64,000 bases of DNA from Burkholderiales bacterium (GTDB lineage Bacteria > Pseudomonadota > Gammaproteobacteria > Burkholderiales > Burkholderiaceae_C): assembly GCA_027484405.1 (NCBI GenBank), contig JAIXTA010000141.1:1-64000 (forward strand), given 5' to 3'. The position numbers and the translations under genes are program-made. Position 1 is the first letter of the stretch. The number at the start of each line of letters is the position of its first letter. The notes beneath the pieces were generated by a model that was not told where the DNA came from, ran no database searches, and was given only the letters and a program-made list of their open reading frames with translations. Positions 37,329 through 40,856 of this stretch are shown here, in pieces.

Positions 37329-37352
37329 ACGCAGGCCATGCGCCGGCTGCGT

Positions 37353-37910
37353 TCAAGGCAGCAGGTCATGGTCGAAGTCTTCCGTCTTAAAGCCAGGAAT
37401 CAGGCTGTAGGCCAGCGGCGAACTGGCTGCGCACTTGCGTACCGACGTGAGCTTGCCCCCTGCGCGCGTGGCAATCCCGGAGGTGAACTGCGGATCGTTC
37501 GGCGCGCCGCCAAAGCCCGTGCGCACGGTCTGATCGAACAGGATGTAGTCCGTGTCGCCGTTGCGAAAGCGGATCCGCGCCTCGCCACCGCCGGAATACA
37601 TCGTGGTGCTCAGCCAAAACAGTTCACTCGGCGGCTGCGGCGCGGATGGAAACCGCAACTCAATCCTGCGGGATGTCCCGAAGCGGTATTGCACCGCAGG
37701 CCCACCCTCGGCGGTAGTACTGGCACACAGCGAGGCGGTTTTGCCCTTGAGTTTGCACGTGAACACCACCTTTTCCCCGCTTGCACAAAGCGATGGCGCT
37801 GGCGAGGCACCGTGCGACGCCCATGCAAACAAGGCTGCGCTTACGCCGATGAGCCAAACGCCGACTGACCGATACATTCTCGGCGCTCCACGAGCAATGA
37901 GGTTCTTCAT
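37353..37910 (-). CDS. Exported Cys-motif protein, candidate immunity partner of the GH19 protein
   Basis: 185 aa from MKNLIARGAPRMYRSVGVWL (37910), whose ATG overlaps the GH19 stop (ATGA). A signal peptide (VWLIGVSAALFAWASHGA) points to the periplasm. The mature protein opens with C42, C52, C62 in LCASGEKVVFTC and ASLCAS, then VQYRFGTSRRIELRFP, and a fourth Cys at 160 (SVRKC). The same C-x9-C-x(9-11)-LCA...RF pattern occurs in the protein at 40146. Tight coupling to a putative peptidoglycan hydrolase lacking a signal peptide is the arrangement of an effector with periplasmic immunity protein. Alternatives: a lysozyme-inhibitor-like protein or an unrelated exported protein. Confidence 0.8.
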   Translation of the reverse strand: MKNLIARGAPRMYRSVGVWLIGVSAALFAWASHGASPAPSLCASGEKVVFTCKLKGKTASLCASTTAEGGPAVQYRFGTSRRIELRFPSAPQPPSELFWLSTTMYSGGGEARIRFRNGDTDYILFDQTVRTGFGGAPNDPQFTSGIATRAGGKLTSVRKCAASSPLAYSLIPGFKTEDFDHDLLP

Positions 37911-38746
37911 CGACGCGTCCAACCGAGCGCCCGTGCAAGCACGCGATGAGCGCGCTCCGTGCAACTGACACGCTCTTCAAGGTGCAGCCTCGCCGCATTG
38001 ACGCGCTTGGTCAGATCCTTGATGTTGTTCGCATCCGCTAGGCGATTCAGATCTACCTGCTTCCAAAACACGCACGCGGACCAAACGGCGTTGTAGGGTT
38101 GGAGCAGCAAGTCAGGGTTGCTGAGTACCCCGAGTTTCGTTTCACGCTCAACCACAGCGTAGTTGTCCTTGAACGTCGTCTGGATCAGACCTCGCCCGCG
38201 ATATCTCCAACCGTCGCCACTTGCCGCATCGCCATTCCCGTATCGACCAGCGTAGGCCAAGTTGGCTAGCTTTTCCGGATTGTGCGCGTAGTCTTCAGAC
38301 TTAGATCCATCGGCCGGTAGCCGGTTACCAAAGATTCGGGTAACGGTCTCGGCGCGATAGTTCAGGTTTTCCTCCAGATCGGCAAATCCGTTGCTCTCAA
38401 TGATGGTCTGCCCCAGAAACGCAGCTATCCGCCGGACATTGGTGATCTTGTAGGTCGGGAACAACGCGTTCATCGCCGCGGCAAAGATTGGAGCGCGCAT
38501 CACACTTACTCGGCTGCTGATTTCAGTCAAGTGCGTGCCCAGCAGCCGAAACGGTGCGTTCGGGTACTCCCAGCTTCGCCCGAGCGCCAGACCGTCTGGT
38601 TCAACGGAGCTGCAGCCTGCATACAGATTGATGCCATACGGCGCGCGCATGAGTGGAACGCCAAGCTCGCGCTCTCGCAGCCACGAAAGATCTTGCGGCC
38701 AGACACCAAGCACGTCTTCGAGGTCGTATCGGTGGAACACTGCCAT
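37907..38746 (-). CDS. GH19-type (chitinase-like/endolysin) peptidoglycan hydrolase, candidate antibacterial effector
   Basis: 279 aa from MAVFHRYDLEDVLGVWPQDL (38746, GGGAG seven bases upstream). Residues ca. 80-279 match the GH19 endolysin pattern: RIAAFLGQTIIESNGFADLE with predicted catalytic E117, ENLNYRAETVTRIF, NPEKLANLAYAGRYGNGDAA, SGDGWRYRGRGLIQTTFKDN and KRVNAARLHLEER. The usual His-Glu-Ser around the catalytic Glu is Ile-Glu-Ser here. Residues 1-80 are an N-terminal region I do not recognise. There is no signal peptide and no prophage or holin gene nearby, which argues against a phage endolysin. Local GC is visibly lower than in neighbours. Coupled by ATGA to the exported protein downstream. 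Confidence 0.85.
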   Translation of the reverse strand: MAVFHRYDLEDVLGVWPQDLSWLRERELGVPLMRAPYGINLYAGCSSVEPDGLALGRSWEYPNAPFRLLGTHLTEISSRVSVMRAPIFAAAMNALFPTYKITNVRRIAAFLGQTIIESNGFADLEENLNYRAETVTRIFGNRLPADGSKSEDYAHNPEKLANLAYAGRYGNGDAASGDGWRYRGRGLIQTTFKDNYAVVERETKLGVLSNPDLLLQPYNAVWSACVFWKQVDLNRLADANNIKDLTKRVNAARLHLEERVSCTERAHRVLARALGWTRR

Positions 38747-39020
38747 GGGCTGACTCCCAGAGAAGCATCGCGGAACCGTCAGTGCGCAGTCCGCATCAAC
38801 CACTTCGCATTACGCAACGACTCGCGCTCGGACATCACTCCCCCAATTGCGCGATGCTGGCTACGCGGGTTGGCCTAACGTGAGTGCAGACGCTGCGGCT
38901 GCGCCCGGAGCCGTAGCCCCATCGACACACAACGATCGCGTGAGAAGTTCGGTGCGGAATCCCAGGATCGTGATGCAGGTGCAGTACACATCGACCGTCG
39001 CTGCGCCGAGGGTTACTCGC

Positions 39021-39530
39021 ATGGCTGTGTACTTCTGCCTGCTGCTCGCCATCATGCCCACTGCGAACGGCGCCCGCGCAGCACCCCCACCCAGCCCGAC
39101 CGCCGAGCTGCCCGTCGACCCTTATGAAGGCGGGCCGCAGTCCGATGTGCCCCGCCCCTACAAGCGTGCGCCCGTGGCCAGGGTGCTGAGCCTGTCCGGC
39201 GGCCTGTCGGCTCAGCCTGCGGCGGCGCAAGCCTGCCAGCGCTTCCAGCCCAAGCCGGCCGATGTGAGCCAGTACTTCGCCCGCGCCCGGCCGGTGAGCT
39301 GGAACGCCTACCTGCAGCAAGGTGACTGGTCGCCCTGCAGCGCGCAGGGCGAGCTGCGCCTGACCGACGGCCGCATGGCGCAATGGCGCATCCAGTCCTT
39401 CGGCCTGGGCACCCTGCGGATCGACGGCGCAAACCACTACTTCAGCTGCACCGAGCGCTGCCGCATCACCCGCCTGCCGCCGAGCGCGGCGGCACTGCAG
39501 GAGGCCGAGCGCAGCCCGCCACCGCGCTGA
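39021..39530 (+). CDS. Exported Cys-rich protein of unknown function
   Basis: 169 aa from MAVYFCLLLAIMPTANGARA (39021), chosen for its signal peptide and GAGGG eight bases upstream; the track ORF starts 58 codons too early. After a Pro-rich stretch the mature domain reads ACQRFQPKPADVSQYFARAR, DWSPCSAQGELRLTDGRMAQ, WRIQSFGLGTL and YFSCTERC, with four Cys in two likely disulfides. I have no named family for it, although the W-S-P-C...G-L-G-T-L...C-x3-C layout looks like a genuine conserved domain. Divergent from the GH19 gene across 274 bp; could be a further envelope or immunity-type protein (inference). Confidence 0.72.
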   Translation: MAVYFCLLLAIMPTANGARAAPPPSPTAELPVDPYEGGPQSDVPRPYKRAPVARVLSLSGGLSAQPAAAQACQRFQPKPADVSQYFARARPVSWNAYLQQGDWSPCSAQGELRLTDGRMAQWRIQSFGLGTLRIDGANHYFSCTERCRITRLPPSAAALQEAERSPPPR

Positions 39531-39572
39531 GCACGCGCGGCTGGTGGGTTCAGGGAAGCGCCAGAAACCGGC

Positions 39573-39957
39573 GCGAGGGCGTCAAGCTGCGTGTGAGGAG
39601 CGCAGCCAGGACGAGCCGTACAGCGAGCAGCGGAGCGGGCACATTGGCCCGCGCAGCAGGTTTCCAGAAGCCCTCTTCAAGCCATCTCGCTTGTGGCACG
39701 GGCATCTTCAGGCCCTTGTGCTCCAAAAGGCGCATGGATGCTGGACTTGGCGATCGAGACCGAGCACTGGTGCGCTTCTTCAGGGCAAATTGCCTCGAAA
39801 AGCGCATGGAACAAGCGAGAAGCCTGCGGGGAGCGTCCAGACACCGTAGCGAGGGGTGAAGTTGCGGGGGAGGAGCGCAGACTGCACGCATCGAACGGCG
39901 ACGAGTTTGCAACGCTCGGGAGCACGCCGATGGGCCCGCGCAGTCGGTTTCCAGAAG
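39573..39957 (+). repeat. Imperfect direct repeat, units 39573-39670 and 39849-39957
   Basis: Both units open with GCGAGGG, share GAGGAGCGCAG, and close with GGCCCGCGCAG-(C/T)(A/C)-GGTTTCCAGAAG; middle parts are diverged. The units are about 276-287 nt apart and flank hairpin repeat copy D. Confidence 0.65.
39678..39825. repeat. Hairpin repeat, composite copy D
   Basis: Starts AAGCCATCTCGCTTGT and ends with the inverse ACAAGCGAGAAGCC. Between them are two tail modules, TTCAGGCCCTTGTGCTCCAA-AAGGCGCATGGATGCTGG and TTCAGGGCAAATTGCCTCGA-AAAGCGCATGGA, aligning with copies A and B. Confidence 0.6.
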
Positions 39958-40145
39958 TGCGCTGCGGTTCGCCCGGGGCCGAGTGCCATACCGCCAAAGG
40001 CACCACACATCCTGCGGCGTGCGAGGCACTAGATTCCGGGCAGCGTGGCTGCGGCGCGCCGCGCCTCCACCGCCCGCCTGCGCCCCCCACCTCCCCGCCC
40101 TCTTCTGCACCCTGACATCCCCCGTCGCCCCACGGGCTTCAACCC

Positions 40146-40817
40146 ATGACTGCCAAGATCTTCGCCCCGATCCTTCTGACCCTGCTGACCCTGCTGAATC
40201 TGGCGGGCGCGGCGCTTGCACAGACCGCCGCCCCCAGCGCAGCCCAGCCCTTGGCCCCACCCGCTCCCCAAGCCGCGGCGCCAGCGGGGGCGCAGACATC
40301 CGCGCAAGCCCCCGCGGCCGCAAGGGCGCTGCCCGCGATGCGCGCTCCCGCCCCCGCGCCCCAGGCCACCGCGGCCCGGCTATGTACCCCCGCGCAGCAG
40401 GTGGCCTTTGCCTGCACCACGCGCGACCCCGCCGGGCAACTGGCCCTGTGCGCACCGGCTGCAGGCCGGCGCGGCGCACTGGCGCTGCGGTTTGCCGCGC
40501 CGCAGGCATCTGCACGTACCGTGCACAGCGCCAGGCCCGGGCAGCCGCTGGCGCAAGGCGGATTTGGCTTTGCAGCGAGCGAGACGCCGGGCAGCGCGCG
40601 GGTGGCGCTGCGCTTTGAGGGTCGGGCGGGCAATCAGATGCTGATCCACCAGCGCGTGGCGGGGCGCGAGATTGCCGGCTGGGTCAGCGTCGATGCCGAA
40701 GACGAGTGGCACTACGAGGCAGTGTGCGAGCAGGTGACGGTGATGGCGCTGCCGGCGCTGCGCGATCAGCTGGTCTGTGACCCGCACAATCAGCTCGGGG
40801 TCAATGCCTGCCCGTAG
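40146..40817 (+). CDS. Exported Cys-motif protein, distant paralogue of the 37353 protein
   Basis: 223 aa. Signal peptide FAPILLTLLTLLNLAGAALA, then about 50 residues of Ala/Pro-rich linker. The mature domain has LCTPAQQVAFAC (C80, C90) and LALCAPAAGRRGALALRFAAP (C102), the same Cys spacing and V-x-F-x-C / LCA / RF pattern as the protein at 37353. It ends in EAVCEQV and VCDPHNQLGVNACP, adding further Cys. Cytoplasmic function is excluded by the leader. Probably envelope-located. No effector gene sits beside it, so if it is an immunity-type protein it is an orphan. Unusually GC-rich compared with the GH19 locus. Confidence 0.72.
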   Translation: MTAKIFAPILLTLLTLLNLAGAALAQTAAPSAAQPLAPPAPQAAAPAGAQTSAQAPAAARALPAMRAPAPAPQATAARLCTPAQQVAFACTTRDPAGQLALCAPAAGRRGALALRFAAPQASARTVHSARPGQPLAQGGFGFAASETPGSARVALRFEGRAGNQMLIHQRVAGREIAGWVSVDAEDEWHYEAVCEQVTVMALPALRDQLVCDPHNQLGVNACP

Positions 40818-40856
40818 TTTTTATGTCCGTTTTTGATATTTTGTATCTGAACCAAT

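What the first reader, a model, noticed from the sequence alone, without database searches (positions are those of the whole stretch)
37340..40820. Candidate antibacterial effector-immunity locus centred on a GH19 peptidoglycan hydrolase
Seen: a GH19 endolysin-like protein with no signal peptide and an unrecognised 80-residue N-terminus, translationally coupled (ATGA) to a small protein that does have a signal peptide; a divergent exported Cys-rich protein; lower GC than the flanks; and repeats alongside. Known: GH19 and lysozyme-like effectors of type VI (and type IV) secretion are cytoplasmic-made wall hydrolases paired with periplasmic immunity proteins. Inference: the pair 37907/37353 is such a cassette, with 39021 and 40146 as extra immunity or immunity-derived proteins. 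No secretion genes or holin lie in the window.
Basis: partly seen in the sequence, partly recalled or inferred. Interest (0 to 1): 0.75.

Follow-up and report, generated by a model that had tools for sequence, protein, structure and literature searches.

The report
Wall-cutting enzyme with its periplasmic guard
Two overlapping genes encode a cell-wall-cutting enzyme made inside the cell and a small exported protein that probably blocks it; the same small-protein family sits beside such enzymes in many bacteria, several times inside the gene clusters of a toxin-injecting machine that this genome also has, so it looks like a weapon-and-shield pair with a shield family that the databases searched do not name.

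Summary
Window 37907-38746 (-) is a GH19 endolysin-type hydrolase without a signal peptide. It overlaps by ATGA with 37353-37910 (-), an exported protein with four invariant cysteines and no Pfam, NCBIfam, PHROG, PADLOC or PDB match. 40146 is a divergent member of the same family; 39021 is not.

New evidence favours a hydrolase/inhibitor pair. Of 63 other loci with the small family, 15 have a GH19 gene next to it, in varied architectures; one more has an N-acetylmuramidase, one a GH108 protein two genes away. Several lie in T6SS gene clusters (Burkholderia: tssC, vgrG, M23-like/GH19 effector, small gene, PAAR). [quoted passage not shown] This genome has a T6SS cluster and five VgrG matches, but no VirB4. 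The sister species AAP99 keeps the locus at a chromosomal, non-prophage site; the hydrolase is under strong purifying selection (omega 0.05).

Limits: about 46 of 63 loci have no recognised hydrolase neighbour, including the nearest relatives (Herbaspirillum); one genus with the pair lacks T6SS; the conserved N-terminal 80 residues are unexplained; inhibition and secretion are untested. Verdict: a plausible T6SS wall-hydrolase effector with a periplasmic immunity protein from an unnamed family; a new member of a known kind.

The parts
37907..38746 (-). GH19 endolysin-type peptidoglycan hydrolase, 279 aa, no signal peptide; about residues 84-270 are catalytic domain, residues 1-80 an unexplained N-terminus conserved only in this genus
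   Evidence: omega 0.047 against AAP99
37353..37910 (-). Exported four-cysteine beta-rich protein, 185 aa, putative cognate inhibitor (immunity); start overlaps the hydrolase stop (ATGA)
   Evidence: no Pfam/NCBIfam/PDB match
40146..40817 (+). Divergent exported member of the same small family, 223 aa; possible extra inhibitor paralogue
   Evidence: E 7e-10 with a family profile built without it; BLASTP E 0.004; kept in AAP99
39021..39530 (+). Exported-looking Cys-containing protein of unknown role, neighbour only; not a member of the small family

Best explanation
37907 is a muramidase-like GH19 enzyme made in the cytoplasm and, most likely, loaded on a type VI secretion spike encoded elsewhere in the genome and injected into the periplasm of neighbouring bacteria, where it cuts glycan strands. 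37353, co-translated with it and exported by the Sec route, sits in the producer's own periplasm and blocks the enzyme, probably by putting the conserved loop around residues 103-111 (TMYSGGGEA) into or over the GH19 cleft. Shown: the two domains and their overlap, selection, repeated pairing of the two families, the T6SS in the genome. Inferred: inhibition, the loop's role, secretion by T6SS.
For: 15 of 63 other small-family loci have a GH19 gene next to it, against about 0.1 expected if a genome of 4000 genes had three GH19 genes (an assumed rate). Partner architectures differ: GH19 alone, PG-binding domain before or after, M23-like+GH19. T6SS genes beside the small gene in L028, L045, L047, L049, L109, L111, L112. 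The label 'wall hydrolase beside it' needs 9 changes on the family tree; the window's clade (SH-aLRT 94) includes the T6SS-cluster member of P. sprentiae. GH19 domain matches TseP C-domain 8XCL (PMC11893102). Own genome: TssB with a cluster TssM to ClpV, five VgrG matches, no VirB4 match. Purifying selection on the hydrolase, omega 0.047, N-terminus 98% identical. No sequence relative of the small protein by tblastn in 50,697 phage records or IMG/VR contigs.
Against: About 46 of 63 loci have no recognised hydrolase neighbour, including the nearest relatives in Herbaspirillum and Rivibacter. Genus g156 has the pair in three species but no TssB match, and G108 lacks it too. The pair is not beside vgrG, and no known T6SS marker was found in the N-terminus. 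T6SS presence is only modestly more common in genomes with the pair (8/12 against 10/34, p 0.04, species not independent).
Confidence: 0.62

Rival explanations
1. The pair is a hydrolase/inhibitor pair, but not a T6SS weapon: a housekeeping or lysis-released autolysin held in check in the periplasm.
For: Three species of genus g156 keep GH19 plus small gene beside mutL without a TssB match; many solitary relatives lie in ordinary chromosomal surroundings.
Against: The enzyme has no export signal and no holin-like partner was recognised; several pairs lie in T6SS clusters, and this genus has T6SS.
Confidence: 0.2
2. The GH19 gene is a domesticated phage endolysin and the small gene a chance neighbour or a general anti-lysozyme/anti-phage guard (comparable in effect with T4 Spackle, which inhibits a phage tail lysozyme).
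For: The GH19 domain is endolysin-like, with 1033 phage matches; jumbo phage PhiEaH1 carries an exported relative of the small protein (profile E 4e-13, Foldseek E 1e-7); many solitary members; Spackle precedent PMC7677548.
Against: No phage genes recognised around the pair or in the sister species; the two families are paired far too often for chance.
Confidence: 0.12
3. The GH19 protein is an effector of another secretion route such as a bactericidal type IV system, as XAC2609 is.
For: XAC2609/XAC2610 is a GH19 effector with a periplasmic inhibitor (PMC10933484).
Against: No VirB4 match in the genome (draft assembly); no XVIPCD-type domain found by Pfam.
Confidence: 0.05

Closest known systems
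TseP/TsiP of Aeromonas dhakensis (T6SS)
   Same: Catalytic domain of the same GH19 type (8XCL matches residues 92-259, E 1e-18); T6SS lysozyme effector with an immunity protein that inhibits it (PMC11893102).
   Different: The window protein lacks the amidase domain and has its own N-terminus; it is not beside vgrG; whether TsiP is related to the small family was not tested.
BCAL1166/BCAL1167 of Burkholderia cenocepacia (predicted T6SS pair, PMC6612558 Table A6)
   Same: Described there as M23, SH3 and lysozyme-like effector beside a tssI gene with a putative immunity gene; same order as locus L045 of B. stagnalis, whose small gene is in this family.
   Different: BCAL1167 itself was not compared by sequence here; the window's effector has no M23 part.
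XAC2609/XAC2610 of Xanthomonas citri (T4SS)
   Same: GH19 effector with a periplasmic inhibitor that puts a conserved tyrosine loop at the active site (PMC10933484).
   Different: The family profile matches no PDB sequence and Foldseek gives no PDB match at E 0.001 or better; no VirB4 match.
T4 Spackle
   Same: Periplasmic protein that inhibits a phage tail lysozyme (PMC7677548).
   Different: Phage-encoded; no relatedness tested beyond the PDB searches, which did not report it.

Membership tests
GH19 / endolysin-type peptidoglycan hydrolase | GH19 domain above the curated cut-off | tested here: met
   PF00182 27.6 bits against cut-off 25.5; PHROG 181 E 2e-66
GH19 / endolysin-type peptidoglycan hydrolase | Conserved acidic residues of the domain kept | tested here: met
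   E117 and E126 invariant among 14 aligned sequences; their catalytic role is inferred from the family
GH19 / endolysin-type peptidoglycan hydrolase | Cleaves peptidoglycan glycan strands | not testable with these tools
   Needs an enzyme assay
T6SS effector-immunity pair | T6SS in the genome | tested here: met
   TssB E 3e-55 and a cluster TssM to ClpV; five VgrG matches
T6SS effector-immunity pair | Toxin without signal peptide, adjacent exported partner | tested here: met
   Read from sequence; ATGA overlap
T6SS effector-immunity pair | Recognised T6SS marker or spike domain, or vgrG/PAAR neighbour at this locus | tested here: not met
   No Pfam, NCBIfam or PHROG match in the N-terminus; no vgrG on contig C212. 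This marker is not required of every cargo effector
T6SS effector-immunity pair | Partner family found with hydrolases inside T6SS clusters elsewhere | tested here: met
   L045, L047, L049, L109, L111, L112
T6SS effector-immunity pair | T6SS-dependent secretion and specific neutralisation | not testable with these tools
   Bench work
XAC2610-type (X-Tfi), Tsi1 or PliI inhibitor | Sequence or fold similarity to the solved structures | tested here: not met
   No PDB sequence match to profile A1 at E 5; no PDB fold match at E 0.001; model pLDDT 80 from eight sequences
Phage lysis cassette / prophage | Holin, spanin or other phage genes nearby | tested here: not met
   No phage genes recognised among the neighbours in the window or AAP99, by reading translations and selected searches, not a full annotation

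The most novel reading that the evidence does not exclude
The small proteins form one widespread, unnamed family of periplasmic inhibitors of glycan-cutting wall enzymes, used as T6SS immunity proteins, as orphan shields and as domains of larger exported proteins, and also carried by jumbo phages, perhaps to block rival lysozymes.
Probability: 0.35. Interest if true: 0.72.

Novelty: new member of a known kind. Interest (0 to 1): 0.5.

Why it matters
If true, it names a recurring partner of GH19-type effectors that Pfam and NCBIfam do not hold, which would let effector pairs outside vgrG islands be found by their immunity gene, and it raises the testable question why many bacteria, and at least one jumbo phage, carry the inhibitor alone.

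Tried and rejected
A1 was too diverse for a pattern scan, so the narrower A2 was used. Weak GAF-like resemblances of the N-terminus (E 1e-3 to 9e-3 in 301 genomes) are near chance and were set aside. Immunoglobulin light-chain hits of the small protein (E 0.05 or worse) rejected as chance. No structural relative in the PDB. 39021 as an immunity protein: not a family member, nearly genus-only. Neighbours of several unpaired loci gave no informative Pfam family; most unpaired loci were judged only from translations and searches with a few seeds, so other toxin types may have been missed. Repeats near 39.6-40.0 kb gave no lead. The TseP 2021 paper was not held.

Full report
Observation. The hydrolase gene 37907-38746 (-) encodes 279 residues; residues 84-270 match GH19 endolysins and chitinase-type domains (Pfam PF00182 E 3e-6; PHROG 181 E 2e-66; PDB 9eoi E 5e-29, 9ms6 E 5e-27 and 8xcl E 1e-18). 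[quoted passage not shown] The ATG at 38746 has GGGAG upstream, and the stop overlaps the start of the small gene as ATGA. The small protein begins with a typical export signal (read by eye) and has four cysteines that stay invariant across 19 relatives. No Pfam, NCBIfam, PHROG or PADLOC family matched it, nor any PDB sequence beyond chance (Pfam and NCBIfam were also run on all 19 members of A1).

Genome context. Another contig, C191, holds TssB and, read from translations, a TssM-to-ClpV cluster; five VgrG-family matches lie on other contigs. No VirB4 match was found. The sister species, Beta proteobacterium AAP99, keeps the same neighbours, with an IS110-like transposase gene between hydrolase and 39021 homologue. 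No phage genes were recognised on either side, from translations rather than a full annotation. Between the two species the hydrolase has omega 0.047, the small gene 0.235, 39021 0.263 and 40146 0.258. The N-terminal 86 residues are 98% identical and otherwise unmatched.

The small family. Profile searches found it in 32 of 399 genomes of the order and 7 of 369 of the class, each count including this genome. I looked at 63 loci outside this genome, with phmmer seeds for GH19, GH108, an M23-like domain and T6SS genes, and a second round on six further loci. Fifteen have GH19 next to the small gene. A GH108 protein lies two genes from it in L047 and an N-acetylmuramidase (PF11860 E 3e-115) next to it in L104. 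Burkholderia stagnalis L045 has tssC, vgrG, an M23-like/GH19 protein, the small gene and PAAR; P. sprentiae L047 is annotated with tssC, vgrG, GH108, PAAR and an ImcF-related gene. L112 has VgrG, GH19 and several tandem small genes. The neighbour scan used few seeds, so unpaired loci may still have other toxins beside them.

Pattern on the tree. On a 62-row tree the label 'wall hydrolase beside it' needs nine changes, fewer than in shuffles (15.8) but far more than one; many branches are weak. This fits repeated gain or loss of the pairing. The window protein's nearest relatives are AAP99, then solitary Herbaspirillum members; the supported clade (94) also holds the T6SS-cluster member L047.

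T6SS association. Of 12 genomes with the GH19 pair 8 have TssB; of 34 with unpaired members 10 do (p 0.04); in the family overall 63 of 201 do. Species are not independent, and genus g156 contributes three pairs without TssB.

Structure. An AlphaFold model of the small protein from eight sequences has mean pLDDT 80, high over residues 40-130, and is almost all beta strands. No PDB fold matched at E 0.001. Two jumbo-phage proteins matched by fold (E 1e-7 and 4e-7); the PhiEaH1 one also matches the family profile (E 4e-13) and has an export-like start. The conserved stretch TMYSGGGEA lies between strands and is my candidate for the inhibitory loop, by analogy with XAC2610 Y170 (PMC10933484); this is inference. 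The hydrolase model is confident only from about residue 65 on.

40146 and 39021. A profile built without the 40146 sequences finds 40146 with E 7e-10 and does not report 39021.

Conclusion. Pairing, context and selection support a hydrolase with a cognate periplasmic inhibitor; T6SS delivery is the likeliest route but rests on genome context alone. Neither enzyme activity, binding nor secretion was tested.

Noticed in passing
L160:31646-32119 (Erwinia phage PhiEaH1): A jumbo-phage protein with an export-like start belongs to the small family (profile E 4e-13; Foldseek E 1e-7, with a second match in Klebsiella phage Miami).
   Followed up: partly
L112:3227-8006: VgrG, a GH19 gene, a GH19 fragment and several tandem small-family genes: looks like an immunity gene array.
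   Followed up: partly
L090, L094, L096: Three species of one genus keep a GH19 plus small-gene pair beside mutL although no TssB was found.
   Followed up: partly
L022, L026, L088, L089, L091-L093, L095, L097: Small domain near or fused behind another exported domain (motif like GTVxEITNGDxACYI), in sets of two to three exported proteins.
   Followed up: partly
L049:5145-6437: GH19 and small gene are each split between frames in Cupriavidus sp. EM10: decayed or sequencing error.
   Followed up: no
L019:9002-10063: IS110-like transposase gene between the hydrolase and the 39021 homologue in AAP99.
   Followed up: no
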